This document shows, one piece after another, positions 36,573 through 59,187 of a stretch of DNA of 64,000 nucleotides (its first letter is position 1; the number at the start of each line of letters is the position of its first letter). The stretch is from assembly GCF_013868415.1 (NCBI RefSeq), contig NZ_JACEMT010000036.1, positions 1 to 64,000 of the forward strand. Direction: 5' to 3'. The DNA is from Marinobacterium marinum. GTDB taxonomy: Bacteria > Pseudomonadota > Gammaproteobacteria > Pseudomonadales > Balneatricaceae. The position numbers were made by a program, and so were the translations under genes. Below the pieces are notes generated by a model. It was not told the DNA's origin, did not search any database, and saw only the letters and a program-made list of their open reading frames with translations.

Positions 36573-37772
36573 CTACTTGGATTTAGCAACCTGAATGGCC
36601 TTATCATAGATATTAACTAGCATTTTCAAGTTAGCCTCTTTTGTATAATGGCTTTCAAATGACTGCCTGGCATTTGAAGCAAGATCTTGGAGTAAAGCAG
36701 GATCGCTCCAAGCAGACCTCACCGTATTAAGCAAAGAATCGACATCAGCTGGTTCAAAAATAAGACCATTATTTTTATGCTGAACTAATGATGGCAAAGC
36801 ACCGATTCTAGATACCGCAGCAGGTGTACCGTGTGCAAAAGCTTCTATCACTACAAGACCAAAAGTTTCAAACCACTCAGACGGTAAAATTTGCAACATA
36901 GAATTGCCAATTTCATTTTGTGTCTGCTCAACAGTGAGCTGCCCAAGGAACTTAACCGAGAGTCCAGCAGACATAGTTTCAAGCTCACAGCGCAATTCAC
37001 CAGATCCTATAATACGCAGTTCGGGTGCCAATGAACCCCATTTTTTCCATGCCCTAATTAATGTCATAACCCCTTTTTCTGAGCTTAAGCGACCCACAAA
37101 AACAACATAAGGCTTACGCTCAGACCAAGGCACAACAGTAGGATTGCCAGGGTAAAAATTAGGCTTTACGTGAACCCTCTCTGCTGGTAGCCCTGCTTTA
37201 ATAACCAGCTCCCGTTGAAAATCAGATAAACAAATAAAGGCATCGACCTTATCATGCCAAGTTTTTATATAGTCATGTAGCGCATTAGAAAAAGCTAAAG
37301 GTAGCGTTGCAGCTCTGCTTTTTTTATAGCAACCATGAAAGATTGAAGGCAAATAAGTCCTTTGATCAATGCACAATGTACATACCTTTCCCGCACGCAT
37401 AGGGATAGCCGCAGGGCAAAAAATCCTATAATTATGTAAAGTCAGGACTGTTGCCACATTCTTAGGGACCGCATAAAAAACCGACGGGGAGAGCATTGGG
37501 AAGGTATTATGTACATGTATCAAGTCAACCCTATTATCTTGGCATATCTTACGAAGCTGACGCACTGCTGAAAAATTCCATGGAGCTAAAACTGCCGATT
37601 TTAATGCACCCAAAACAGGTTTTTTCTTTATATCATTATTATGTCTTAAAAAGGTACCAACAAAAAATCCGTTTTCTTCTAAAACTTTTTTTTCCGCCAA
37701 GAAAACTTGGTTCTCACCAGAGGGTATGGCCGAAGAATAAAAATTATGAACCATTATTATTTTCAAAGCCAA
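36573..37772 (-). CDS. glycosyltransferase family 4
   Basis: A 399-residue GT-B transferase. The N-terminal acceptor domain starts LKIIMVHNFYSS; the C-terminal domain carries VVFVGRLSSEKGVMTLIRAW and the retaining-GT4 E-x7-E region (EWFETFGLVVIEA). It also has a CxxC segment (KVCTLCIDQRTYLP) of the kind found in some family members. No ATG fits. GAGG precedes a TTG at 37772 (spacing 4), with another TTG at 37766 (spacing 10) giving MKIIMVHNF. Base composition shifts here to AT-rich. Donor and acceptor are not predictable. Confidence 0.88.
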   Translation of the reverse strand: MALKIIMVHNFYSSAIPSGENQVFLAEKKVLEENGFFVGTFLRHNNDIKKKPVLGALKSAVLAPWNFSAVRQLRKICQDNRVDLIHVHNTFPMLSPSVFYAVPKNVATVLTLHNYRIFCPAAIPMRAGKVCTLCIDQRTYLPSIFHGCYKKSRAATLPLAFSNALHDYIKTWHDKVDAFICLSDFQRELVIKAGLPAERVHVKPNFYPGNPTVVPWSERKPYVVFVGRLSSEKGVMTLIRAWKKWGSLAPELRIIGSGELRCELETMSAGLSVKFLGQLTVEQTQNEIGNSMLQILPSEWFETFGLVVIEAFAHGTPAAVSRIGALPSLVQHKNNGLIFEPADVDSLLNTVRSAWSDPALLQDLASNARQSFESHYTKEANLKMLVNIYDKAIQVAKSK

Positions 37773-37882
37773 AAAACCTCACCAAATATTAAATATAATA
37801 ATAACTAGAAATTTTATCGCCAATATAAAAAATATATTAATGAAAGACTTTAATTATTAACGTTTAAATTGCAAAAATTAAA

Positions 37883-38794
37883 CTAAAACAAATTTTTGTT
37901 AAAAAAACTTCTACAAAACTTATTAACTCCACGCAAAAATAAGCTTTTTGTATTGATTTTGTAAAAAAACTTAATGCGATGTACAGCCTGCTCTGACTCC
38001 AAAACATCTACAGGGTATTCAATAAAAGACGCTTCACTAGAAATTTCTTGGGAAATTTTTGAACTACTACAGTTAGTACCACTTCCATCATGTCCGATAT
38101 TTTTTACAAAACTAATAGTGGGGTTCAAGCAAAGCCCGTTGTTTTCATAAATAGACGCATACCAAAAAATAGCCCAAGTATCCAGTGACGAGTAGGCATT
38201 CCTTAAAACTTGATTCCAAAACACTCCCGACCCGTCTAAATCAAAGTGTTTCTTCTTAGTCTTATCCCATTTTTTAACTAACTCTTTTGGGTTCTTTTTA
38301 AAATAACTCCATCGATCTGCCCAAGTTGCCCAACCCCAGCAGTTCATCACACGCCAAAAGAAAAAATCCCCTAATCCTTCAGTTTCAATTGGGTAATTCC
38401 AGCCACTGACATGCCAAACCTTCTTTTCCTTCTCATAATAGTCAAGCATCTGGTTCATAAACTTTAAAAACGCAGGGCTAGTCACAATGTCATCCTCCAT
38501 CACAATAACCTTACCGTATTGATTAACTACAGTCGTCACACCATCTATGATATTTGCTGCCAACCCCCAGTTTTTATCACGCTCAAATATCTTTACGCTT
38601 TTAAAGCCTGATATTGATTTGATGAAGTTTCTGACCTCTTGAACACTTTCAACAGATTCTGAATTTCTTGCACCATCAGAATAGATAATCAAGTCACTTA
38701 TAGTTGCCAGTTCATTAGCTTGGAGTGCTTCAACTGTTTTTCGCGTGTGCCAAGGCCTATTGTAAACGAAAAGTACTATCGGAGCTGTGTTCAT
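37883..38794 (-). CDS. GT-A fold sugar transferase
   Basis: A 303-residue transferase with the N-terminal PIVLFVYNRPWHTRKTVEAL typical of GT2/GNT-I-like enzymes, an acidic metal site VMEDDIV near residue 100, and CWGWATWADRW near 155, which recurs in sugar transferases of capsule loci. Two short helices at the C-terminus are basic. AT-rich composition is like its neighbours. A 110-bp AT-rich spacer without signals separates it from the GT4 gene downstream. The linkage it makes is unknown. Confidence 0.82.
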   Translation of the reverse strand: MNTAPIVLFVYNRPWHTRKTVEALQANELATISDLIIYSDGARNSESVESVQEVRNFIKSISGFKSVKIFERDKNWGLAANIIDGVTTVVNQYGKVIVMEDDIVTSPAFLKFMNQMLDYYEKEKKVWHVSGWNYPIETEGLGDFFFWRVMNCWGWATWADRWSYFKKNPKELVKKWDKTKKKHFDLDGSGVFWNQVLRNAYSSLDTWAIFWYASIYENNGLCLNPTISFVKNIGHDGSGTNCSSSKISQEISSEASFIEYPVDVLESEQAVHRIKFFYKINTKSLFLRGVNKFCRSFFNKNLF

Positions 38795-38840
38795 TAATAA
38801 CCTTCGATTATAAATTCTATCTACATGATTTATTTAAAAA

Positions 38841-40055
38841 TCAAGATCCTTTATAGTTACTACTAAATAACCCAACACTGCTATTTAATTTGTTACAAGT
38901 CTTATAACAAATAATGATAACAAAAAAAATAGCTGAAGACGGATAAGAAGGTATCCCAAATTTCAAAAAAACAACCAACAGAAAAAATGCCGAGAATAAA
39001 TTTAAAAAAACATTTCTCATAAAATACAAGTATGTCATTAAAAAAAACATACCAATTATTAAGCCATGTACTACAAATTGGTTTAGAAAAAATGTATGGT
39101 CGCCCAATGAATTGAGCGGATCATTCCATTCGAGATTTTTCTTATGTACATCACCAAAGCCATAAATCAACTTATTAGTGTCAGAGAAGAATTTATACAA
39201 TAGATTTAACCTTAGTGAAGTACTAGCATCAGCACCTTCGATAAATCTCTCATATCTCAAAACAAGTGGTTCATATATGTAAATTAAAAAAACAACTACT
39301 GCGGAAGGAATAACAACCAGTGAAAGGATTCTATATCTCTGATGTAGAATTCCAATAAACAAAAAAACTGCAGGAATAACCAAAAAATAAGAAATTGTTG
39401 ATTTAGTTATCAATATGGTAATTACAGAAAAAAAATAAATTAATAATGAAGACCCGCCGTACAAGTAATATAGAAAAAGAAAAGCAGCAATATGCGCAGC
39501 CTGAATACTAGGTTCCAAAAAAAAACCAGAATATCTAACACCAAAATCATGAATATATGCAGTGTTAAATGCAGTTGTAGGCACACCATTAAACCATGAA
39601 TTCATATCAATGTATAATCCAAAAACATTGTACAAAAAATACTGAAAAACCAAAAATGATATATTGAGAATCAAGACGATAAATATTGATTTATGTACAA
39701 ATACAATTCCAAACTTTGAAATTCCAAATGAAAAAATAACCGCATATATTAATGGAAGAGTTGAACTGTATAATCCATTAAAAAGTTTAAATAAAGTTAA
39801 CCGCCCAAGGGCACCATCTACAAGCAAACTTAACACACCCAAGAAAAACACTGCCAAACCAAAGAAAATAAAATCCTTTCTTAACTTAAAAGATCCAAAA
39901 ATTGAAATTATTAATAAAATTATCCCTACTGAAAAAGGTATCAATAGCGAGTTTATATAATAGCCAACATAATTCATCAACTTTAAATAGGGCAAAAAAA
40001 TAACACCAAATATAAAAAGATACATTTTTTGATTGTTAAGCAAGGAAGAATTCAT
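38841..40055 (-). CDS. wzy: O-antigen polymerase candidate (Wzy)
   Basis: A 404-residue polytopic membrane protein with about 11 hydrophobic segments and a larger periplasmic loop (about 275-315, GVHKKNLEWNDPLNSLGDHTFFLN). Sequence conservation in Wzy is low; the call rests on topology, AT-rich composition and position between wzx and glycosyltransferase genes. No other polymerase candidate remains in the locus once 24538 is called ligase. Polymerises lipid-linked repeat units in the periplasm. Confidence 0.75.
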   Translation of the reverse strand: MNSSLLNNQKMYLFIFGVIFLPYLKLMNYVGYYINSLLIPFSVGIILLIISIFGSFKLRKDFIFFGLAVFFLGVLSLLVDGALGRLTLFKLFNGLYSSTLPLIYAVIFSFGISKFGIVFVHKSIFIVLILNISFLVFQYFLYNVFGLYIDMNSWFNGVPTTAFNTAYIHDFGVRYSGFFLEPSIQAAHIAAFLFLYYLYGGSSLLIYFFSVITILITKSTISYFLVIPAVFLFIGILHQRYRILSLVVIPSAVVVFLIYIYEPLVLRYERFIEGADASTSLRLNLLYKFFSDTNKLIYGFGDVHKKNLEWNDPLNSLGDHTFFLNQFVVHGLIIGMFFLMTYLYFMRNVFLNLFSAFFLLVVFLKFGIPSYPSSAIFFVIIICYKTCNKLNSSVGLFSSNYKGS

Positions 40056-40175
40056 GTGCGCCTATTTTAAAACGATTGTTGAAATAAAAAAATCGATCTT
40101 GTCAAAATTAAAATTCGAATACCATGGCAGTAAGTAAATAAGGATAGGAATAAGGGCCAGGGTAAAAATTCATTA

Positions 40176-40976
40176 TTAACTTTTCCACTTGTCAATAACC
40201 TTTTCAAATTGGATATAGATCTCTGGTGAGTTTCTTTTTGCTCTTACCGCGTCGATGTAGGGCTTAGCTTTTCTGAAGTGATTTTCAAGCTTGTGAACAT
40301 ACATTTCCTTCGCAGTTTTTGAGTCAATATTTCCCTTATTTAGTGCGAGACAAAAACCTTCTATTTGGTTCAGATAAAGATGAAATTTTCTTCTAATATC
40401 AAGGAAACGCTCTTTAATTAGAGGCGCATAATCGTCACAGTAGGCCAATCCGCATACCTGGTTTGGTAGCTTATCGTAATTATGATCTCCTGTATTTGGA
40501 CTATTATATGATTGGCTTTTAGGTTTTTCAGCATGATATTTATTATATACATCCAATATTTCGCGCTTAACTTGGTTGGATAATCGATCCCAGCATAATT
40601 GATACTCAACGCTGGTGATTTCTTCATCAAGCATCAGTTTCACCTCGTGACTTGCCATTGCATAGCTACTTGACCAAAAATTTAGCACTCTATCAATTTC
40701 ATTTTCGATCCTTTCAAGCTCCATGGGCCTGGGATAATAGGTAAGCGCTGCTTCTTTCCGCTGTACACTTTTGTTGCTTAAGAACTGAATCCAAGCCAGA
40801 AACAAGCCAACCATAACAACTGATGGCATAATCAAGTCTTTTTTATTTATATAACAAGACTCTCCAATCCATTGCCATGATATCAAAGAAAATATAGAAA
40901 TAAAAACTAATCCTATGACGACGTCTACCCTATGCTCTAATATTGACCTTATAATTTCTTTTATGTTTTTATTCAT
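40176..40976 (-). CDS. hypothetical two-TM protein
   Basis: A 266-residue protein I cannot assign. Two membrane segments near the N-terminus (about 19-36 and 48-66) are followed by a mainly helical cytoplasmic domain with many charged residues and a C-terminal RAKRNSPEIYIQFEKVIDKW. The first frame codon is TTG; the ATG at 40976 is used, with only a weak AGATGG upstream. AT-rich. It lies between wzy and the TPR protein gene, at the end of the accessory module, and might be part of it. No role in glycan synthesis is visible. Confidence 0.65.
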   Translation of the reverse strand: MNKNIKEIIRSILEHRVDVVIGLVFISIFSLISWQWIGESCYINKKDLIMPSVVMVGLFLAWIQFLSNKSVQRKEAALTYYPRPMELERIENEIDRVLNFWSSSYAMASHEVKLMLDEEITSVEYQLCWDRLSNQVKREILDVYNKYHAEKPKSQSYNSPNTGDHNYDKLPNQVCGLAYCDDYAPLIKERFLDIRRKFHLYLNQIEGFCLALNKGNIDSKTAKEMYVHKLENHFRKAKPYIDAVRAKRNSPEIYIQFEKVIDKWKS

Positions 40977-41030
40977 CAAAAAACCATCTTAAATAGGTGC
41001 AATGGAGATCAGAGAAAAACTGAATAAAAC

Positions 41031-42842
41031 TCACACATAGAAGGCCCCATCCAACTCCCCACAAACAAACCCATAATGCCCTCTCAACCAACTCGCATAA
41101 TGGTCCAGCGACGGCTCGTACATCTTCACAACACGCATCCAACGCGCCGCGGCGACTTTGTCTTCACGCAGCCTCAGGTTGAAGTAGGCCAGGCCAATCA
41201 ATTGATCGACCTGTTGGCGGTGGTGTTTCAGGCCTGCCATCAGTGCGGTGGCCTGATCGAGTGCATGTTGGGCCAGGTCTGAATACTGCGCACGCCAGCT
41301 GGGCTGTGCTGCGGGTGGCCATTGATCGTGATAGGCCACCAACTCATCGCAGATGATCAGCCAGGCTTCTATTGTTTGCTGCGCAGTGCCCTGTTCTGCC
41401 AACCATTCGGCTTTTTCACGCAGGTGGTCGAACAAAGCGTTGAACGCGGCTTGTAAGTTGGTTGAGCCTTCGGCGAGTTCGATCCGTGCCTTGTCGGCAT
41501 CTGTTCGGTAGCGGTGCCATAGCGTCAGCGGGCCGATCAGTTTGGGTGATAAGTTACTCAAGTACGTTTCGATTGTCGCGGTGTGTTTCAGCAGCTGCTG
41601 GGCGGATTGCTGCATCAGGTTGATTAGCTGCACAGGCACTTTGTTGGTTTGCTGGAGTTCTGTTTCTATCTCTCGCTTGAGATCATGGCGCAGTTCGACC
41701 AGCCCGGCCACACGCTCGCTTATTGGTACGGCAGGTGTGGTGGTTGCCAGCCTGTCCAGCAGGTGCTCGATCAACTCGGGATAGTTATCGATTGTGCACG
41801 ATATACCATCGTTGCGCATCATGCGTAGCTGGGTGATATCCAGTGCAAGCTGTTCGCGCGACGTGCGTGGTTTTAACCGTTCGAGCTGTCGATCAAACTC
41901 TGCATAGATGTTGCGCACCCAGTCCGCATACCCGGCTTCACGCGCGGTGTGCAGGTGGTTATTAAGCACTGCAATCACATGCGCCAATCCGCTGGTATCA
42001 CCCGCTGCAAAGGCTTCGCGTAACACCGCTTTGGCATCTTCCGGTTGGCCTTTACGCACCAATGCGATGGCCAGGTTGTGGTGGACAATATCGGTCAAGC
42101 CAGCGCGAGGCGCTTTGCTGAATTCTACCCTTGCTGATTGCAGATGACGCAGTTGGGCATCCCTGTGCCCTTGCAACCCTTCCAGGCGCGCCATGTTATT
42201 GTGTAACAGCACTCGATCTGCCGGCTCTTTGCAGTGGTCCAGACCGGATTCCAGCAGCGTCCGGGCCTGCGGGTAGTGCTCATCCTGTAATGCCAGCTCT
42301 GCTTTGAGTAGCAGGCAGTTGAGGTTTGCCTGGCATTCCTGATCAGAAATATCGGCCAGCCTGCGCCGGGCTTCGGCTGGATTATCAGCCTCGATGAACA
42401 ACTGCGCCCAGGCGATTTGCAGACTCAGTTGCTCATCCGGTAGCAGGTATCGGGTGTCGTGTGCACTGAGTACCTCATGCGCTTTGATGAAATCACCCTG
42501 ATGACAATATGCACGCGCCAGCAAGACGGCGCGCTTGACCTGATAATGCGTGCCTGCCAAAGCCAATGGCTTGAGCAGGATGCCGATCGCGCGATCCGGT
42601 TGGGCTGCATTCAGGGCATGTTTAGCCTTATCGAGCCTCGCCCACTCGTGGGGCAGCCGTTTGAGCCAAACCAGGCGCACGCAACCGAGTGTGGCGATCA
42701 GCAGTAATGGCAGCGCGACTGTCCCCTGCCCACTTGCGCTGCTGCCGGTGGCCAAAAGCAGCGGCACTGCAATAACGGCATAGCGCGGAACGGTGAGCCA
42801 GTGCAGTTTGCTTGGCTGGAGAAGGTCAATTAGGGGCGGCAT
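41031..42842 (-). CDS. membrane-anchored TPR-like repeat protein
   Basis: A 603-residue protein with two hydrophobic N-terminal segments (about 20-34 and 42-59), then helical repeats with TPR-like periodicity (about 70-300: DRAIGILLKPLALAGTHYQ, ARAYCHQGDFIKAHEVL, ARTLLESGLDHC, AIALVRKGQPEDAKAVL), and a helical C-terminal half ending WLRGHYGFVCGELDGAFYV. Base composition is clearly richer in GC than the wzy side. It starts 20 bp after the DUF3037 gene, so it is co-transcribed with it. No enzymatic motif is seen; a scaffold role is likely. Confidence 0.72.
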   Translation of the reverse strand: MPPLIDLLQPSKLHWLTVPRYAVIAVPLLLATGSSASGQGTVALPLLLIATLGCVRLVWLKRLPHEWARLDKAKHALNAAQPDRAIGILLKPLALAGTHYQVKRAVLLARAYCHQGDFIKAHEVLSAHDTRYLLPDEQLSLQIAWAQLFIEADNPAEARRRLADISDQECQANLNCLLLKAELALQDEHYPQARTLLESGLDHCKEPADRVLLHNNMARLEGLQGHRDAQLRHLQSARVEFSKAPRAGLTDIVHHNLAIALVRKGQPEDAKAVLREAFAAGDTSGLAHVIAVLNNHLHTAREAGYADWVRNIYAEFDRQLERLKPRTSREQLALDITQLRMMRNDGISCTIDNYPELIEHLLDRLATTTPAVPISERVAGLVELRHDLKREIETELQQTNKVPVQLINLMQQSAQQLLKHTATIETYLSNLSPKLIGPLTLWHRYRTDADKARIELAEGSTNLQAAFNALFDHLREKAEWLAEQGTAQQTIEAWLIICDELVAYHDQWPPAAQPSWRAQYSDLAQHALDQATALMAGLKHHRQQVDQLIGLAYFNLRLREDKVAAARWMRVVKMYEPSLDHYASWLRGHYGFVCGELDGAFYV

Positions 42843-42862
42843 AGTGAATAGACGTTAGCCTT

Positions 42863-43672
42863 CTACGCAATCACAAACTCAGCCAGCCGTTCGATTTCAG
42901 CCATTGTAATAACTTCAGCCCCTGTTTCAGCCAGCAGATCAACGGCACGCAGGTAGGCATGTGTATGCTGTGTGTCTTGGTTTCCGGGTCCATCAACTGC
43001 AAAGAGCATCTGCCGGGGTTTTTTGCCCCGGCGTGCGAGCTCATTCATACGGAACTGCCACTGGCCAGCTTTTTCGACCATCTTGATGGTTTCACGCTGG
43101 TTCAGGTCAAGTGGCTTGATGGCTTTGCATACTTGCTCGCCTTGGCGAGCCACAAACGGCAGTGCAACCTGGTATTCGTCATCACCCAATTTGGCAGACT
43201 TATACCGATCAGCCAGATCGAACTGATGCAAAAGCGTTTTGATTCTCTTTTCGAGCACCGTTTCACGGTATTGTAGCGTAACAAAGCGGTGCTCGACGTA
43301 GTGTTCGTACAGCTCAGTCAACGTTTTGGCTGGATCATCCGTCAATACCACGCCCGGGTCACTGAACCGGAACAGCGCTTCACGCGGGCGCGTCAGTTCC
43401 TGAAACAGCCCATCGGTCAATGCAGTTTGGCTGGTGGCCAGTTGTTGAATGCGCGTGAGTTCGTTTTTCATCGCCTGGATAGCCGTTTTGTAGGTGCGGC
43501 TATCCAGGTCCTTGAAAAAATCGGTCAGCCGCTTGTAGCGCTTATCCTGCAGCTGGAAGCCGAAATAAGCTACATTACCGGCAGCCAGCACAATACCGAC
43601 GTTGGCAAATTCGCTTGTTTCAACATAGGGCATATACCGCAGAATGGCATACTGGCAGGCTACTCGTTTCAT
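42863..43672 (-). CDS. DUF3037 family protein
   Basis: A 269-residue protein whose N-terminal half has the DUF3037 pattern (CQYAILRYMPYVETSEFANVGIVL...). The C-terminal half is longer than the minimal domain and helical-basic. The ATG at 43672 overlaps the stop of the HipA-like gene (ATGA), which argues for coupled translation; an in-frame TTG at 43684 is less likely. DUF3037 genes are, from memory, often paired with HipA-like kinase genes, as here. Molecular function is unknown. Confidence 0.82.
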   Translation of the reverse strand: MKRVACQYAILRYMPYVETSEFANVGIVLAAGNVAYFGFQLQDKRYKRLTDFFKDLDSRTYKTAIQAMKNELTRIQQLATSQTALTDGLFQELTRPREALFRFSDPGVVLTDDPAKTLTELYEHYVEHRFVTLQYRETVLEKRIKTLLHQFDLADRYKSAKLGDDEYQVALPFVARQGEQVCKAIKPLDLNQRETIKMVEKAGQWQFRMNELARRGKKPRQMLFAVDGPGNQDTQHTHAYLRAVDLLAETGAEVITMAEIERLAEFVIA

Positions 43673-44406
43673 GGCGTATTCCAAAAATCGGGATCGATGA
43701 CTCTGTTCAGTAATTGTAGAATCTGCGTTGTATCAAAGCTGACCGAGACACTCATCTCATCATCAATGTACCACCACTCATTGGGTACAATGAGGATGAT
43801 AGCATGCCAATTATCCAGCGCTTGGTGCATTGTGTGCCGTAACACGGCCAGCGCTGCCAAGTCGGCTTGCAGCAAACGGAATTGTTGATGAAATACATGA
43901 TGATCAACGAAGCTTGCTGCATCAAAGCCGGTATCGAACGACTGGTTGTGGTCGATGACAACCAATTGCCGCTCACCCTCATCCCAAAATAGATTGGGAT
44001 TACCGCCTTCAAACGACAGGGTACGATCCTCGTTGTGAATCCACCAATCGAATGCAGCGACCAGCTGTTGCAAATTTTGCGGTATTTCGTGGATACGACT
44101 GAATGCCAGTTCGGTTACGCCGCATTCACGCGAACCGAAGGCCGATCCCGCGCCCAAATCTTACAAATCCAGGCCTGCAGAGAATGCAAGCAACTCTTCA
44201 GGTACATCAACGATAGCGAAAGGGGCGATGGGCACATTAGTCAGCAATGCCAGTTTGCCTGCAATCCACTCACAAAGCAGACTACGACGGCTGGCACCCT
44301 CACCCTTCACGAAGTAGATATTGCCATCATTACCTCTACAGATATATGGGCGAGTTACACCCTGATCAGCGCGGCGTATGACTTCAATGATCTCGACTCG
44401 GCTCAT
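43669..44406 (-). pseudogene. HipA-like kinase gene with a single in-frame stop
   Basis: One continuous frame of 245 codons broken only by TAA at 44163-44161 (codon 82). Before it: MSRVEIIEVI... with Lys34 in IYFVKGEG (ATP-binding-type Lys). After it in the same frame: DLGAGSAFGSRE, the glycine-rich segment of small HipA-like proteins, then FDWWIHNEDR (catalytic-loop type, about 119-128), GGNPNLFW and VIDHNQSF (metal-binding DxG-like, about 150-156). Both halves look well conserved, so the stop is recent, a sequence error, or read through. The last codons overlap the DUF3037 start (ATGA). HipA kinases phosphorylate serine on protein targets; the target here is unknown. Confidence 0.85.
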
Positions 44407-44425
44407 GCTAGCCCTTGGATCAGGC

Positions 44426-45124
44426 CTACTGCCCCTGAAACACTTGTACCGCCGCCGCTCTCAACTCATCGGCCTTGCCACCCACCAGTGCGCCGAAGAA
44501 GTCTGATACCTGCTGCATGGCGGCTTCGCCGGTATCGGATGCGATTCGATGGGCAAGCTTACTACAGGCCGCCTTGATCACGCCCTTAATGCTGGTATCC
44601 GGTGCGCCGGCTTCTTTCAGCACTCTTTCAGCGGTTTCAAGCTCGTCCTTTAGCGCATCCTCTACCAGCGCCACGAAAGCATCGACCGACAGTTTGACCA
44701 GACTGGATGAGAAAGATCCGTCACTGATGTAACCAAGCTTGCGTACCTTGTCACGCAGATGATCCAGCAGCAGTGGGTTATCCACTTCGAGCATGAAGTG
44801 GGTGCCTTTCTTGTCGATCAGTGGGCTGCGCAACAGTTCCTTTACCCGACTATCGAGATCCGTGCTGGTTGAACGACGCAACTCACGCTCGTACAGCAGT
44901 TTGTTCGCTTTGGTACGCGTTACCTTGAGTTTGGAAACCAACTCATAGACCTGTGGCTGCGGGCTAATCACGCCCAACTGTTCCAGCGCATCGAGCATGA
45001 TCAGCTCGACTTCCAGTTTTGGCAGCGCACCAAATGCAGGGCTGAGGTAGCGGTCGAGCAGTGTGTTGAGTACCTGGGTGGCGCTCTGGTTGCCTGCGGT
45101 ACCCTGCTCGGCTTTTAAGTCCAT
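44426..45124 (-). CDS. hypothetical protein with helix-turn-helix-like segment
   Basis: A 232-residue soluble helical protein not recognised by family. Residues about 57-85 (PQVYELVSKLKVTRTKANKLLYERELRR) have the look of a winged-helix or helix-turn-helix, followed by a charged central region and an Ala-rich C-terminus (DFFGALVGGKADELRAAAVQVFQ). It lies 14 bp after wzx and 19 bp before the HipA-like gene, so it forms part of the same accessory module. It could be a DNA-binding partner or antitoxin-like regulator; this is inference only. Confidence 0.65.
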   Translation of the reverse strand: MDLKAEQGTAGNQSATQVLNTLLDRYLSPAFGALPKLEVELIMLDALEQLGVISPQPQVYELVSKLKVTRTKANKLLYERELRRSTSTDLDSRVKELLRSPLIDKKGTHFMLEVDNPLLLDHLRDKVRKLGYISDGSFSSSLVKLSVDAFVALVEDALKDELETAERVLKEAGAPDTSIKGVIKAACSKLAHRIASDTGEAAMQQVSDFFGALVGGKADELRAAAVQVFQGQ

Positions 45125-45138
45125 TTTTAGCGTCTTGT

Positions 45139-46551
45139 TTATTTTCTTAATCTGACAGCGACAAACCCGACCGCTTCAAGCACTTCAGCTTTGAAACTGA
45201 ATAGTGCCGCAACAAGCAGCAATCCCCAAAACGCCAACATAAATGGGTAGATGCTGGCACCGTAAAGCGTAAAAATGCTGGCCCCTGCTACCGTCAAAGC
45301 TGAGTACCCATACAGCAGCAACCTTGGCATCGGTTTCCACAAATAGATTGAAAACTCAGTACGCAGTACGAAAAAGACCCAAAACGAAATACAGGTACTA
45401 ACGGCTGCACCAGCAGCACCGAAGCGCGGGATCATCAGCCAGTTCCCAACAAGATTGACAGCAAAGGCAACCAAAGCGGACAACATGGCAAAGCTGCTGC
45501 GGCGTGAGATACCTATGCCCACCACGGTTGTTTCTGACAGGGTATAGAGCAAGGGTGCGCCAAGGCATGCCACCAGAATCCATTGCACTGCGATATAGTT
45601 TGCCGGTAAGAAAAGTGTGACGATCCATGACAGCAGTCCCGCCAGGCAGAACACCAATACAACAAGGCCAAGTATGTAACGGCTTACCTTATGTACGTTC
45701 TCCAGCCCTTCGCCCTTGCTGGCCCATTTATACACTGTAGGCGCCCAAACGGTGGAGAATACACTTTGCAGAATGGTTGCAGCCCCTGCAAAGCTCACAG
45801 CCACTGAATAGACGCCAAGCTCTTCAAAGCTGGCCAGTGTACGCAAGAACACCTTGTCAATTGCTGTCAAACCCCAGTAGGCAACGCCTCCCAGTATCAG
45901 GGGAAGACCAAAGCGCAGCATCAGTTTCAGATGCTGCCAGTCAAGCGTTGCAGTTATTCCGGCGATCCATTCCTTGCGGGTATTGAATGCAAATACCACG
46001 CAGACAAACACAAAGGCAGCTGTATTTGCGATCACCAGGTTGGTCAGGCTTGTATCGGCACCCAGCAAGACATAGCCAGCGATGATGGCGAGCAATACCA
46101 GCTTGGGCAGTAACTGGCTCATTGAGAATGCCAGACCCTGCTCGTTCATCCGCAGCACCAGTGACAAGAAACGGGATATGAAAGCCGCAAGCAAGACCGT
46201 CGCTATCAGCAGGCTCAAGTGCCATTCAGGGCGCTCAAACAACCAGCCCGCAAGGGTACCGCCGAATGACAGCAAGACCAGCAGTGTCACAAACAGTATG
46301 GATAAACCCGGCAACAAAGCACGCTTGAGCAAAGCCGGTTTATCGTCCACCTCGTGAAATTCACGTACATAGGCTTGGTCCAACCCCAGACTGAACAGCA
46401 GTGTGCTAAAGCCGATAGTGACCTGCAGCATCGCCATTCTGCCGACATCTTCCTGTGAAAAGAACCAGGTGATGATCGGCAGCGTGATAAGGCTCAGCAG
46501 TGCGCCACCGATCGGGCCAATGGCGAAGGCGGCTATTTTACGTGGTGTCAC
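45139..46551 (-). CDS. wzx: O-antigen flippase (Wzx)
   Basis: A 470-residue polytopic protein with about 12-14 membrane segments and the polysaccharide-synthesis flippase N-terminus (IGGALLSLITLPIITWFFSQEDVGR). It moves undecaprenyl-linked repeat units to the periplasmic face. The start is a GTG at 46551, with GAGG six bases upstream, and it overlaps the preceding gene's stop (GTGA). It lies in the same transcription unit as the candidate Wzy. Confidence 0.93.
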   Translation of the reverse strand: MTPRKIAAFAIGPIGGALLSLITLPIITWFFSQEDVGRMAMLQVTIGFSTLLFSLGLDQAYVREFHEVDDKPALLKRALLPGLSILFVTLLVLLSFGGTLAGWLFERPEWHLSLLIATVLLAAFISRFLSLVLRMNEQGLAFSMSQLLPKLVLLAIIAGYVLLGADTSLTNLVIANTAAFVFVCVVFAFNTRKEWIAGITATLDWQHLKLMLRFGLPLILGGVAYWGLTAIDKVFLRTLASFEELGVYSVAVSFAGAATILQSVFSTVWAPTVYKWASKGEGLENVHKVSRYILGLVVLVFCLAGLLSWIVTLFLPANYIAVQWILVACLGAPLLYTLSETTVVGIGISRRSSFAMLSALVAFAVNLVGNWLMIPRFGAAGAAVSTCISFWVFFVLRTEFSIYLWKPMPRLLLYGYSALTVAGASIFTLYGASIYPFMLAFWGLLLVAALFSFKAEVLEAVGFVAVRLRK

Positions 46552-48302: not shown

Positions 48303-49406
48303 CTACTCCAACCTCATGTGTGATTTGATCACATTAATAATACCTTCCTGTTCCGACTTTTCCAATGCTGCATAAATTGGGAGACACAAAATTCTACTTG
48401 CTATATTTTTTGAGTATGGCTGCATTTCCTTTTGGTCTAAAAACTCAACTATTTCCAATGATGGAAAAAAGTATCGACGCGCCAGAATCCCATTATCTTT
48501 GAGCAGGTCTGCTACCCGCACTACCTCCTGCTCTGACTTGAACACTATCGGGAAGTAGGCGGCGTTGTAGGACAGATCGTCACTACGCTTTTGCAATTGC
48601 ACCAAACCTGCCAGCTCTCGCGCATAGCGCTCCCAAATAGTGTGTCGCGCATTCAAATTGGCTTCAATTTCATCCAGCACACACAAGCCCATCGCGGCCT
48701 GCAGCTCATTCATTTTGGCGTTAATGCCCAGCTCTTCTATACATTCCGGCCCTGTAATGCCGAAGTTAATCATCTTCTTCGCCCGCTCAAGCTCTTCCTT
48801 GTGCTTGAAGATAATGGCCCCGCCCTCACCTGTGTGAAACAGCTTTGTTGCGTGAAAACTCAGGGTTGCGGCATCACCATGCTTGAGCAGGCTTTCACCC
48901 TTGTATTTCACACCGAAAGCGTGAGAGGCGTCGTAGATCACTTTCAGTTTGTACTTCTGGGCAATAGCCTCAATCGCCTCTACATCACAGGCATTACCAA
49001 AAACGTGTACGGGAACAATCGCACGAGTATTCGGTGTAATAGCCGCCTCAATGTTGTCCGGGTTTAGGCACCAGGTATTCGGGTCTATGTCTGCAAATAC
49101 TGGTTGTACCCCATCCCACTTCAAAGAACTGGCGGTGGCGATAAAAGTAAACGGGGTAGTGATCGCCTCAGGCTGTGCGCTAGGTGCTGCATCGCTCACG
49201 CCCAAAGCACGATAGGCAATTTGCAGAGCCAAAGTGCCATTGGAAACAAGCAGCAGGTTTTCAACACCCAAATAGTCTTCCAAGCGTTTTGTAAGCTCTT
49301 GTACCAACTGACCGTTATTGGTCAGCCATTGACGTTCGTAAATGCCATCAATGTATTTATCGAGCTTTTCTCGACTGGGGAAGTATGGCTTAGTTACTGG
49401 AATCAT
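48303..49406 (-). CDS. vioA: dTDP-4-amino-4,6-dideoxyglucose aminotransferase (VioA-like, DegT family)
   Basis: A 367-residue PLP-dependent sugar aminotransferase. It opens [19 protein letters not shown]...[19 protein letters not shown] like VioA. The PLP lysine is in [14 protein letters not shown] (about residue 188), and [13 protein letters not shown] is also present. It would convert dTDP-4-keto-6-deoxyglucose, made by the RfbA and RfbB encoded just upstream, to dTDP-4-amino-4,6-dideoxyglucose (Qui4N); a Fuc4N product cannot be excluded. The ATG overlaps the rfbA stop. Confidence 0.85.
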
Positions 49407-50275
49407 GCTTTTTCACCCGCCAAGGCCAACAGGTACTGGCCATAACCATTCTTGCTTAACGCCTTGCCTTCCTCGATAAGCTTGTCTTTTGTTAGCCAAC
49501 CATTGCTGAAGCCGATCTCTTCCAGACATGCGACCTTGTAGCCTTGACGCTTTTCGATGGTTTCAACAAACTGCGCGGCTTCCAGCAGACTTTCATGGGT
49601 GCCGGTATCCAGCCAGGCAAAGCCACGCCCCAGCAGCTCCACATTCAAATCGCCGCGTTCAAGGTAAGCCTGGTTGACGCTGGTAATTTCCAGCTCGCCA
49701 CGGTGTGAGGGTTTCACCTGCTTGGCAATTTCCACGACATCGTTGTCGTAGAAATAGAGGCCGGTCACGGCATAGTTGGACTTGGGCTGTTCGGGCTTTT
49801 CTTCAATGGAGATCGCTTTGTTGTTTTCATCAAAAGCGACCACACCAAAGCGCTCCGGGTCTTTCACCTGATAGCCGAATACGGTGGCGCCGGACGTGCG
49901 GGCAGCTGCCTGTTTCAGCTTGGGCGAGAAGCCCTGACCGTAAAAGATGTTATCGCCCAGTACCAGGCAGACGCTGTCATCACCGATAAACTCTTCACCA
50001 ATGATAAAGGCCTGCGCCAGACCGTCCGGGCTGGGCTGTTCGGCGTAGCTGAGTTGAATACCGAAGTTGCTGCCATCGCCCAGCAGTTTTTCAAAGTTGG
50101 GCAGGTCTTCGGGGGTGGAGATGATCAGGATGTCACGGATACCGGCCAGCATCAGTACCGAGAGCGGGTAATAGATCATCGGCTTGTCGTAGATGGGCAG
50201 CAGCTGCTTGGACACGCCTTTGGTGATCGGATACAAACGGGTGCCGGAACCACCGGCGAGGATAATGCCTTTCAT
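49403..50275 (-). CDS. rfbA: glucose-1-phosphate thymidylyltransferase, copy 1
   Basis: A 290-residue enzyme making dTDP-glucose from dTTP and glucose-1-P. Signature [27 protein letters not shown] is at the N-terminus, with IEEKP and [11 protein letters not shown] further on. It is clearly homologous to a second copy at 57177 but differs throughout, most visibly at the C-terminus, so this is not a recent duplication. It lies with rfbB copy 1 upstream and the aminotransferase gene downstream, so its product likely feeds the amino-sugar branch. Confidence 0.96.
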
Positions 50276-50305
50276 GGTCTGTCCTTGTAACTGAAACTGT
50301 TGTAA

Positions 50306-51376
50306 TCAGAGCTGCCCAAGGCGCTCACGCTGGTAGGTGCCATCCTGTACACGGCGGCACCATTCCAGGTTGTCGAGATACCACTGTACGGTTTTGCGGA
50401 TACCTGACTCGAAGGTTTCTGCCGGTTTCCAACCCAGTTCGCGCTGTATTTTGCTGGCGTCAATCGCGTAGCGGCGGTCGTGGCCGGGGCGGTCTTGTAC
50501 GTGCGTGATCAGGTCACGGTAGCGGGTTTCAGCCGGGGCCAGTTCCTGCAGAATATCGCAGATGGTGTGGACCACTTCGATGTTCTGCTTTTCGTTATGG
50601 CCGCCGATGTTGTAGGTTTCGCCTAATTTGCCTTCGGTGACGACCTTATACAGTGCACGAGCATGGTCTTCCACATAGAGCCAGTCGCGGATCTGGTCGC
50701 CATTGCCATAGATCGGCAGCGGCTTGCCTTCCAGCGCATTGAGGATCATCAACGGTACCAGCTTTTCCGGGAAGTGATACGGCCCGTAGTTGTTGGAGCA
50801 GTTTGTGACCAGCACCGGGAAACCATAGGTGCGCATCCAGGCACGTACCAAGTGGTCCGAGCTGGCTTTGCTTGCAGAGTATGGGCTGCTGGGTGCGTAG
50901 GCGGTAGTTTCGGTGAACAAGTGCTGGGTTGCATCATCCGCCTCTGCCGGGTGCGGCAGGTCGCCGTAGACCTCGTCGGTGCTGATATGGTGGAAGCGAA
51001 ACGCCTGTTTGCGTGTATCGTCCAGCCCTTGCCAATAGCTGCGAGCGACTTCCAGCAAGGTGTAGGTGCCAACGATGTTGGTTTCAATAAACGCAGCCGG
51101 GCCATCGATGGAGCGGTCTACATGGCTTTCTGCGGCCAGATGCATGATGGCATCGGGCTGATGCTCAGCAAATACTCGCTCCAGCTCGGTGCGGTTGCAG
51201 ATATCGACCTGCTCGAAGGCGTAGCGGTCAGAGCTGTCGACTTCACGCAGGTTTTCCAGGTTGCCTGCATAGGTGAGCTTGTCGACGTTGACGACGCTGT
51301 CCTGAGTGTTTTGGATGATGTGGCGGATAACCGCCGAACCGATAAAGCCGGCACCGCCGGTTATGAGGAGTTTCAT
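50306..51376 (-). CDS. rfbB: dTDP-glucose 4,6-dehydratase, copy 1
   Basis: A 356-residue NAD-dependent dehydratase making dTDP-4-keto-6-deoxyglucose. [14 protein letters not shown] at the N-terminus, STDEVYGDL and [10 protein letters not shown] (catalytic Tyr-x3-Lys) are intact. It starts the dTDP-amino-sugar block. A 111-bp spacer with a REP-like palindrome separates it from ugd. Copy 2 at 58084 belongs to the rhamnose block. Confidence 0.96.
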
Positions 51377-56640: not shown

Positions 56641-57180
56641 TTACCCCTGTGCCAGCAGTGCTTTCAAGGTCAGGTTGACTTGATCCTTGGCCGAAAGCTG
56701 TGGCTCATCAATCGGCCATTCAATACCAATATCGGGATCATTCCAGAGCAGCCCACCTTCATCTTCCGGGTGGTAGTAATCGGTACACTTGTACTGGAAA
56801 TCGGCAATATCACTCAGCACACAAAAGCCGTGCGCATAGCCGGGCGGAACCCACAGCTGGCGATGGTTTTCATCGGTTAGCTCGACGCCCACATATTGTC
56901 CGCAGGTAGGCGACTCGGGGTTGATATCAACCGCCACGTCATACACCGCGCCACGGCTGCAGCTCACCAGCTTGCCCTGGGGGCGGGTTTTCTGGAAGTG
57001 CAGACCTCTCAATACCCCCTTCTGTGAGCGGGAATGGTTATCCTGCACGAACGGCAGCGTAATACCGGCTTCGCGATAACGCTCCAACTGGAAGGTTTCC
57101 TTAAAAAAACCGCGATGATCGCCAAATACGGTCGGTTCGATGATCAGTACGCCCGGCAATCGGGTTTCGATAACGTTCAT
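56641..57180 (-). CDS. rfbC: dTDP-4-dehydrorhamnose 3,5-epimerase
   Basis: A 179-residue cupin epimerase acting between RfbB and RfbD. Family marks: [34 protein letters not shown] (active-site His) and [16 protein letters not shown]. Length is normal. The start overlaps the stop of rfbA copy 2 (ATGA), with AGGAG just upstream. Confidence 0.97.
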
Positions 57181-58052
57181 TGCATCTCCTGTTGCAACAG
57201 GCGCTTCAGGTATTGTCCGTAACCGGTCTTGCTCAGCGCCTGAGCTTGTTGTTCCAGCCTGGTCGCGCTCAGCCAGCCCTGACGGTAGGCAATCTCCTCC
57301 AGACAGGCGACCTTTAACCCTTGGCGAGCTTCCACCGTATGGACAAAGTGGCTGGCTTCCATCAGCGAATCGTGAGTGCCTGTATCCAGCCAGGCAAAAC
57401 CACGCCCCAACAGGCTGACATTGAGATCACCGCGCTGAAGGTAGGCATTGTTCACATCGGTAATTTCCAGTTCGCCTCGATGCGATGGTTTGACCTGCCG
57501 GGCAATTTCAATCACATCGTTGTCATAGAAGTAGAGGCCTGTGACGGCATAGCTCGATTTGGGGTGGGTCGGTTTTTCTTCGATCGACAGCGCCTTGCCC
57601 TGCTGATTAAATTCCACCACACCGAACCGCTCGGGATCGTTTACATGGTATCCGAATACGGTTGCACCTTTGTGTCGCTCAGCGGCGGCGCGCAACATGC
57701 CGGTAAAACCATCGCCATAGAAAATATTGTCGCCCAGAATCAGGCACACCGAGTCGGTGCCGATAAAATCCTCACCAATAATGAATGCCTGAGCCAGGCC
57801 ATCCGGCGAAGGCTGTTCGGCGTAGCTGAGTTCAACGCCGAACTCGCTGCCATCGCCCAGAAGTTTGCGAAAGTTGGGCAGATCTTCCGGCGTGGAAATG
57901 ATCAATACTTCCCGTATACCCGCCAGCATCAACACCGACAGGGGGTAGTAAATCATCGGCTTGTCGTAAATCGGCAGCAACTGCTTGGAGACACCACGCG
58001 TGATGGGATGCAAACGCGTGCCTGAACCTCCCGCCAAGACTATTCCTTTCAT
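57177..58052 (-). CDS. rfbA: glucose-1-phosphate thymidylyltransferase, copy 2
   Basis: A 291-residue RfbA with [20 protein letters not shown] and [14 protein letters not shown]. It belongs to the complete rfbBACD rhamnose set, between rfbB copy 2 and rfbC. Compared with copy 1 (49403) it keeps the same active-site segments but diverges in many surface positions and at the C-terminus (LLQQEMQ). Having both copies fits separate dTDP-sugar branches. Confidence 0.96.
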
Positions 58053-58083
58053 GGATCACCTCAATAACAAAAAACAGGAGACA

Positions 58084-59187
58084 TCAATGAGCCGTTTCGC
58101 TCTTGTCGCCCAATCGACCCAAACGGTAGTCTCCGCTTAGCACTCGCTGCCACCACTCAGGGTTGTCCAGATACCATTGCACTGTTTTGCGAATACCGGT
58201 TTCAAACGACTCCTCAGGCACCCAATCCAGTTCACGCTGGATTTTACTCGCATCAATGGCATAGCGCACATCATGCCCCGGACGGTCCTTCACAAACGTA
58301 ATCAGATCACGGTAGTGGACGACACCCTGTGTGGAAGCCCCCTTTGCAATCGCGCAAGACCCCGGCGGCGCCATCTCCTGCAGCAACTCACACAGGGTTT
58401 CAACCACCTCAAGATTGCGCTTCTCGTTATGGCCACCGATGTTGTAGGTCTCCCCTACTTGGCCCCGAGTCGCAACAGTCACCAGCGCTCGTGCATGATC
58501 ATCCACATACAGCCAGTCCCGAACCTGGCCACCATCGCCATACACCGGCAATGGCTGCCCCGACAACGCATTCAAAATCATGTGCGGTATCAGCTTTTCG
58601 GGGAAGTGGTAAGGGCCGTAGTTATTGGAGCAATTGGTAATCAGCGTCGGCAGCCCGTAGGTCCGCTGCCAGGCGCGTACCAGGTGGTCTGAACTGGCCT
58701 TGGATGCCGAGTAGGGTGAACTGGGCGCGTAAGAGGTTGTTTCCGTAAACAGGTCGTCGGTGCCTTCAAGGTCACCGTATACTTCATCCGTCGATATATG
58801 ATGAAACCGAAAGGCGGACTGCTGCTCAGACGACAGTTTGGACCAGTAACGGCGGGCTGCCTCCAGCAGAGTGTAAGTCCCCACGATGTTGGTCGCGATG
58901 AAATCGGCCGGGCCGTCAATCGAACGGTCAACATGGCTTTCTGCCGCCAAATGCATCACGTGCGTTGGCTGAAAGTCGGCAAAAATCCCGTCCAGTGCTT
59001 CCGCATCCACAATATCGGCCTGATAGAAACGATATCGGGGCGAGTCTTCCACCGACGTTAACGATTCCAGGTTGCCTGCGTAGGTCAACTTATCCAGGTT
59101 AGCCACGTCGGCCCGGGTATTTGCTATCAAATGGCGTACAACAGCCGAGCCGATGAAACCGGCGCCACCGGTAATCAGAATTCGCAT
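58084..59187 (-). CDS. rfbB: dTDP-glucose 4,6-dehydratase, copy 2
   Basis: A 367-residue dehydratase with [23 protein letters not shown] and [10 protein letters not shown] intact. It is 11 residues longer than copy 1, mainly through an insertion before [15 protein letters not shown] ([18 protein letters not shown]). It opens the rhamnose block after two glycosyltransferase genes. Confidence 0.96.

What the first reader, a model, noticed from the sequence alone, without database searches (positions are those of the whole stretch)
41031..45124. HipA-like kinase / DUF3037 / TPR module embedded in the O-antigen operon
Four tightly packed minus-strand genes (unknown HTH-like protein 44426-45124, HipA-like kinase 43669-44406, DUF3037 protein 42863-43672, two-TM TPR-like protein 41031-42842), perhaps with the two-TM protein at 40176, lie between wzx and wzy. 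Spacings are 14, 19, -4 and 20 bp, so they read as one unit. None has a motif for sugar metabolism. HipA kinases are known in toxin-antitoxin/persistence systems, and HipA-DUF3037 gene pairing is known to me from other genomes. The combination with a membrane TPR protein and an HTH-like partner could be an undescribed kinase-based stress or phage-defence system riding in a variable surface locus.
Basis: partly seen in the sequence, partly recalled or inferred. Interest (0 to 1): 0.78.

Follow-up and report, generated by a model that had tools for sequence, protein, structure and literature searches.

The report
Broken HipAD pair in O-antigen locus
Two of the four flagged genes are a copy of HipAD, an already described bacterial anti-virus toxin-antitoxin pair whose toxin gene is cut short here, and the other two genes are unrelated neighbours, so the locus is largely ordinary.

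Summary
HipA_2 plus DUF3037 is not undescribed: it is PADLOC candidate PDC-M66, published as HipAD/DS-6, a kinase with a DUF3037 partner that protects E. coli from phage (passages). The four-gene unit did not recur: 14 of 14 strong HipA_2 matches in two genome samples lie beside DUF3037, yet 0 of 20 other pair neighbourhoods hold a relative of the 232-aa, TPR or DUF4760 protein. The 232-aa protein belongs to the SidN/Lpg1083 fold family; the TPR protein found only itself. Best reading: a decayed HipAD copy beside two orphan genes directly behind wzx, absent there in the one congener whose wzx matched. The interruption rests on one assembly. Side leads: a bacterial context for the SidN fold, and interrupted toxin frames in 4 of 14 pairs.

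The parts
43669..44406 (-). hipA (HipA_2 kinase toxin) reading frame, interrupted by an in-frame stop; fragments 44161-44406 (81 aa) and 43669-44157 (162 aa from a TTG)
   Evidence: PF20613 E 8.9e-83 over residues 6-243 read with X at the stop; PDC-M66A E 4.6e-12; phrog_3162 E 5e-49; stop
44161..44163 (-). in-frame TAA, codon 82 of the hipA frame, between the N-terminal lobe (VKG motif) and the conserved NEDR / IDHN motifs
   Evidence: alignment of 12 HipA_2 sequences
42863..43672 (-). hipD (DUF3037 antitoxin), 269 aa, open, overlaps the hipA frame by 4 bp
   Evidence: PF11236 E 4.5e-26; PDC-M66B E 1.6e-22 over residues 6-265; phrog_5137 E 2.3e-64
44426..45124 (-). 232-aa protein of the SidN/Lpg1083 fold family; no evidence that it belongs to HipAD
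   Evidence: phmmer to PDB 7yji E 1.1e-5; family profile E 1e-29; Foldseek top match 7yji, E 1.4e-3, probability 1.00; relative of 53% identity in G025
41031..42842 (-). 603-aa orphan protein with N-terminal hydrophobic helix or helices and TPR repeats; no evidence that it belongs to HipAD
   Evidence: TPR_14 E 2.5e-6; no relative
40176..40979 (-). DUF4760 protein with two hydrophobic peaks, GC 0.36, of a different base composition; better left out of the module
   Evidence: PF15956 E 1.2e-21; composition

Best explanation
The core of the finding is a decayed copy of the HipAD anti-phage toxin-antitoxin locus that sits, with two unrelated genes, directly behind the O-antigen flippase gene. In the intact system (tested by others in E. 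coli) a small HipA-family kinase is the toxin and the DUF3037 protein (HipD) neutralises it; infection is thought to free the kinase, which stops the cell and so aborts the phage (release and substrate are inferred). Here the kinase frame is cut by a TAA after 81 codons, before the conserved motifs of the second lobe, so the toxin is most likely inactive (inferred), while the antitoxin frame is open. What is left would do nothing by itself, or would act as a spare antitoxin against HipAD brought in by phages and plasmids (inferred, untested). The 232-aa SidN-fold protein and the TPR protein are passengers or a separate unit read in the same direction.
For: Matches to HipA_2, DUF3037 and both PDC-M66 models. 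Same order and adjacency in 14 of 14 strong HipA_2 matches (E below 1e-50, own genome included) in samples of 244 and 398 genomes. A 4-bp overlap of the two genes in six of six annotated phage and plasmid copies read (a seventh record had no annotation). In phage PhiR5_1 the pair is annotated HipA toxin / HipD antitoxin. Published tests: kinase deletion abolished defence and DUF3037 deletion was toxic (PMC12548924, passages); mutation of a predicted catalytic residue lost defence (PMC13092281, passages). TAA seen directly; TAA also ends the neighbouring wzx gene. No relatives of the other genes in 20 of 20 neighbourhoods. Third-position GC of hipA and hipD (0.51, 0.57) differs a little from that of the 232-aa and TPR genes (0.65, 0.63).
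Against: The stop rests on one assembly; no second strain was found (only the window's own genome carries the module among 8 genomes of the genus), so a sequence error cannot be excluded. The four genes are tightly packed and co-directional, which suits one transcript. Compositional differences are small: the share of core stretches at least as distant is 0.165 for the 232-aa gene, 0.035 for hipA, 0.050 for hipD and 0.000 for the TPR gene. Co-occurrence was tested only against 20 neighbourhoods of about 4 to 10 kb a side.
Confidence: 0.8

Rival explanations
1. The HipAD copy works: the TAA is a sequence error, is read through, or restarting at the TTG that is the second codon after the stop makes a two-piece kinase.
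For: The frame is otherwise open over 245 codons with the conserved motifs kept, so decay would be recent; the TTG lies right behind the stop; the antitoxin is open.
Against: TAA is an ordinary stop in this window (wzx ends with it); the first fragment lacks the conserved NEDR and IDHN motifs and the second lacks the N-terminal lobe; interrupted HipA_2 frames occur in 3 of the 13 other strong matches, so decay is not unusual.
Confidence: 0.15
2. One reading: four (or five) genes form one undescribed kinase-based defence system.
For: Tight spacing and shared direction; HipAD itself is a defence system; one relative of the 232-aa gene (L009) lies near SIR2-HerA and PD-T4-7 defence genes.
Against: 0 of 20 other pair neighbourhoods carry relatives of the 232-aa, TPR or DUF4760 proteins; the TPR protein found only itself among 244 order and 99 family genomes and nothing in genome contigs, viral contigs (both scans reach close relatives only) or plasmids; in a published copy the pair gives defence without the rest of its operon; the kinase frame is interrupted.
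Confidence: 0.04
3. The 232-aa and TPR genes were once a two-gene unit of their own into which HipAD was inserted.
For: Their GC and third-position GC are alike (0.555/0.648 and 0.567/0.632) and differ from hipA and hipD (0.495/0.512 and 0.519/0.574).
Against: No genome was found with the two genes adjacent; the TPR gene was found nowhere else; no partner shared by the seven other loci of the 232-aa family was seen in their ORF lists, of which only part was scanned against families.
Confidence: 0.2
4. The genes are routine parts of O-antigen loci.
For: They lie in the same direction inside the cluster.
Against: No sugar-related family in any of the four; the congener with an 86% identical flippase has other genes there.
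Confidence: 0.02

Closest known systems
HipAD (DS-6; PADLOC PDC-M66) anti-phage toxin-antitoxin system
   Same: HipA_2 kinase gene followed by a DUF3037 gene with a 4-bp overlap; matches along most of both PDC-M66 models
   Different: The kinase frame is interrupted; the locus lies in an O-antigen cluster, whereas other copies read here lie in a phage, on plasmids and, in three chromosomal loci scanned for it, near restriction-modification genes
HipBA toxin-antitoxin
   Same: HipA-family kinase toxin
   Different: Partner is DUF3037, not the HipB repressor, and its gene comes after the kinase gene; HipBA facts are recalled or from the passage
Retron-Sda1 operon (retron with HipA-like kinase and DUF3037)
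   Same: Same two protein families; kinase and DUF3037 account for the defence against Bas51 (passages)
   Different: None of the nine window proteins scanned matched a reverse transcriptase
SidN/Lpg1083 fold family (PDB 7yji)
   Same: The 232-aa protein matches over most of its length by family profile (E 1e-29) and by fold
   Different: No secretion context was looked for; role in bacteria unknown. Relatives in other bacteria are already in print (passages of PMC10729856, and PMC11696984)

Membership tests
HipAD / PDC-M66 | HipA_2-type kinase homologue | tested here: met
   PF20613 E 8.9e-83 with X at the stop; PDC-M66A E 4.6e-12
HipAD / PDC-M66 | DUF3037 partner gene directly after the kinase gene | tested here: met
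   PF11236 E 4.5e-26, PDC-M66B E 1.6e-22, 4-bp overlap
HipAD / PDC-M66 | uninterrupted kinase frame (kinase activity is needed for defence) | tested here: not met
   TAA at 44161-44163; so filed as a relic of a HipAD locus, not as a working member
HipAD / PDC-M66 | toxin neutralised by DUF3037; protection from phage | not testable with these tools
   needs expression and plaque assays
SidN/Lpg1083 fold family | sequence and fold similarity along the chain | tested here: met
   the model is of moderate confidence (pLDDT 69) and VIA-align Z 5.8 over 181 residues is modest, so the sequence match carries the claim
SidN/Lpg1083 fold family | injected effector function | not tested
   shared ancestry does not show shared function
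   0 of 20 neighbourhoods

The most novel reading that the evidence does not exclude
The interrupted toxin with an open antitoxin is kept by selection: HipD without an active HipA acts as an anti-addiction or anti-exclusion factor that blocks HipAD carried by incoming prophages and plasmids, and the SidN-fold neighbour is a bacterial conflict protein of the kind from which the Legionella effector was recruited.
Probability: 0.06. Interest if true: 0.6.

Novelty: already known. Interest (0 to 1): 0.2.

Why it matters
It removes a false lead (a supposed new four-gene defence system) and places the locus as a decayed copy of a published system. The side leads matter a little more if they hold. 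HipAD toxin frames were interrupted in 4 of 14 pairs and the antitoxin frames in 0 of 14 (Fisher p = 0.098, not significant), which hints at selective loss of the toxin.

Tried and rejected
Rejected: a four-gene system; polysaccharide function; an HTH reading of the 232-aa protein (no family match; the weak transcription-factor resemblance of SidN's N-terminal domain reported in its paper is the only thing in its favour). The weak PADLOC matches of the 232-aa protein to Cas7 (E 0.007) and of the TPR protein to CorA (E 0.008) were taken as noise.

Led nowhere: scans of genome contigs with the 232-aa and the TPR proteins; scans of viral contigs with the 232-aa family, the TPR protein and the DUF3037 protein; plasmids with the 232-aa protein, two of its relatives and the TPR protein; phages with one 232-aa relative. 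The window's 232-aa protein and the TPR protein were not searched in the phage collection. The TPR model had pLDDT 45 and was not used for a fold search. Other folds in the VIA-align list for the 232-aa model (homing endonucleases, WhiA, ribosome recycling factor, arginine repressor) cover mostly residues of about 80-158 with middling Z and were not taken as relatives. The repeat scan showed no clear boundary repeats; promoter and terminator patterns were fewer than in shuffles. The window's HipA and DUF3037 proteins found no convincing solved relative by sequence. Dropped before the count of 14: HipA_2 matches weaker than E 1e-50, that is 8 genomes and 21. Five of these (G326, G508, G276, G615, G319) were checked and all five have DUF3037 next to them; the others were not checked.
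Full report
Observation. The ORF list and translations confirm four minus-strand frames between a flippase-family gene (45139-46551, Polysacc_synt E 2.2e-21) and a very hydrophobic 404-aa protein (38841-40055, no Pfam match) that may be wzy. The spacings of 14, 19, -4 and 20 bp are right. One thing was missed: the HipA-like frame 43669-44406 is not open. It holds TAA at 44161-44163, codon 82, and the search of the genome reports the same single TAA. The list shows the two halves as ORFs of 81 and 162 aa. In an alignment of 12 HipA_2 sequences the stop falls between the N-terminal lobe with the VKG motif and the conserved NEDR and IDHN motifs (the reading of these motifs as ATP-binding and catalytic is recalled knowledge of HipA kinases). 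TAA is an ordinary stop in this window: wzx ends with it.

Identity of the pair. Read with X at the stop, the first gene matches Pfam HipA_2 at E 8.9e-83; the second matches DUF3037 at E 4.5e-26. PADLOC-DB names the two PDC-M66A and PDC-M66B, E 4.6e-12 and 1.6e-22. Both also match phage protein families (phrog_3162, phrog_5137). Two papers (passages read, not whole texts) test this pair. PMC12548924 reports that in the Retron-Sda1 operon the HipA kinase is needed for defence against phage Bas51, that loss of DUF3037 is toxic, and that retron parts are not needed; the authors see a standalone system with the kinase as toxin. PMC13092281 calls it DS-6, renamed HipAD, and reports that mutation of a key predicted catalytic residue abolishes defence and that AlphaFold3 predicts contacts between the two proteins and with DNA. 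Its reference 35 for the name is Brenes and Laub 2025 (seen in the reference list; that paper was not read). The record of phage PhiR5_1 annotates the pair as HipA toxin and HipD antitoxin between cI and kil. A pair close to the PhiR5_1 one is present in 283 of 5,426 complete E. coli genomes, 282 of them at 99% identity or more. So the pair is not undescribed. In the held library DUF3037 occurs in three papers (search listing), one of them on Arabidopsis.

Does the four-gene unit recur? In 244 genomes of the order (own included), HipA_2 matches with E below 1e-50 occur in 7, and DUF3037 in the same 7. In 398 genomes of the phylum, 10 have such a match, three of them shared with the first sample. 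In all 14 the DUF3037 gene lies next to it. I fetched neighbourhoods of the 13 other chromosomal copies and seven phage or plasmid copies and compared their ORFs of 60 aa or more that close within the stretch with the five window proteins: HipA and DUF3037 matched in 20 of 20, the 232-aa, TPR and DUF4760 proteins in 0 of 20 at E up to 0.01. Conversely the 232-aa family was found in 3 other genomes of the order sample and 4 others of the phylum sample. G276, G326 and G508 also carry a distant HipA_2 relative, but on another contig or more than a megabase away. The TPR protein found only itself in 244 order and 99 family genomes, and nothing in genome contigs, viral contigs (these two scans reach close relatives only) or plasmids.

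Site. By DNA, none of the 7 other genomes of the genus carries the module; one, G245, matches only the end of wzx. There the flippase protein is 86% identical and is followed by a gene that looks like a glycosyltransferase (label recalled from sequence, no family search), without the module; DNA similarity fades shortly after the end of wzx. So the module was seen in one species of the genus only and sits directly behind wzx. The DUF4760 gene and the two genes below it are lower in GC (0.36, 0.29, 0.37) than the module (0.50-0.57), so the DUF4760 gene is better left out of it.

The 232-aa protein. No family library knows it (noise apart). A single-sequence model of moderate confidence (pLDDT 69) has PDB 7yji, Legionella Lpg1083/SidN, as top Foldseek match, E 1.4e-3, probability 1.00, TM-score 0.42. 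Sequence supports this independently: phmmer of the window protein alone gives E 1.1e-5 and a profile of four family members gives E 1e-29 over almost the whole chain. The SidN paper (abstract and passages) reports a new fold and already aligns relatives from other bacteria, and an effector atlas (passages) names a Campylobacter relative, so the wider distribution is not new. One relative, in L009, lies next to a PD-T4-7 gene and about 5 kb from SIR2-HerA genes. Of 10 neighbours tested in L007, L008 and L049 (3, 7) none matched PADLOC at E 1e-4, nor did one further L009 neighbour; neighbours in L046-L048 were not scanned. No common partner emerges.

Function. Best reading: a decayed HipAD locus. 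Shown here: homology, order, pairing, interruption, no recurrence of the rest in the places searched. Shown by others: kinase-dependent defence and the antitoxin role of DUF3037. Inferred: that the fragments have no kinase activity, that the remaining antitoxin is idle or acts as a spare antitoxin, and that the 232-aa and TPR genes are passengers.

Interrupted toxins elsewhere. HipA_2 frames are interrupted in 4 of the 14 copies while DUF3037 is open in 14 of 14. The four differ in kind: the window's stop precedes the NEDR and IDHN motifs; in G252 the frame shifts between those two motifs; in G185 and G520 both motifs stay in one open stretch, with a TGA and a TAG in the C-terminal part (G185 also lacks the first 17 profile positions in frame), so these two might still make active protein. 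Fisher p for 4 of 14 against 0 of 14 is 0.098. This is a lead, not a result.

Context elsewhere. Upstream of hipA, L032 has a type I specificity gene directly next to it; L099 has one, and L035 an MmeI-like gene, one gene away (ORFs, families). The other ten chromosomal copies were not scanned for this.

Verdict. Ordinary in kind: a broken copy of a published defence pair beside two unrelated genes. Interest 0.2. The most that the data leave open is a kept antitoxin and a conflict role of the SidN fold, at low probability.

Noticed in passing
L037, L098, L102 and window 43669-44406: HipA_2 toxin frames are interrupted in 4 of 14 strong matches (two of them only in the C-terminal part or ends) while the paired DUF3037 frames are open in 14 of 14; Fisher p 0.098.
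   Followed up: partly
L009 8-2535, 7782-8423 and 8554-9426: A SidN-fold relative of the 232-aa protein lies next to a PD-T4-7 gene and about 5 kb from a SIR2-HerA pair (PADLOC matches).
   Followed up: partly
L032 10347-12062, L099 10098-11867, L035 11595-15083: HipAD copies lie near restriction-modification genes: type I specificity genes directly upstream (L032) or one gene away (L099), an MmeI-like gene one gene away (L035).
   Followed up: no
window 49403-51376 and 57177-59187: Two paralogous gene pairs in one sugar locus that look like rmlA/rmlB (names recalled); the copy in G245 matches the first pair at 92-94% and the second at 72-79% identity.
   Followed up: no
window 37001-41000: A strongly AT-rich block (GC 0.29-0.36 per kb) inside a locus of about 0.55 GC, holding the putative wzy, a glycosyltransferase-family gene and the DUF4760 gene.
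   Followed up: no
L040 10898-11911: The same part of the O-antigen locus of G245 holds a gene that looks like an IS30-type transposase (label recalled from sequence, no family search), a possible route for gene turnover there.
   Followed up: no
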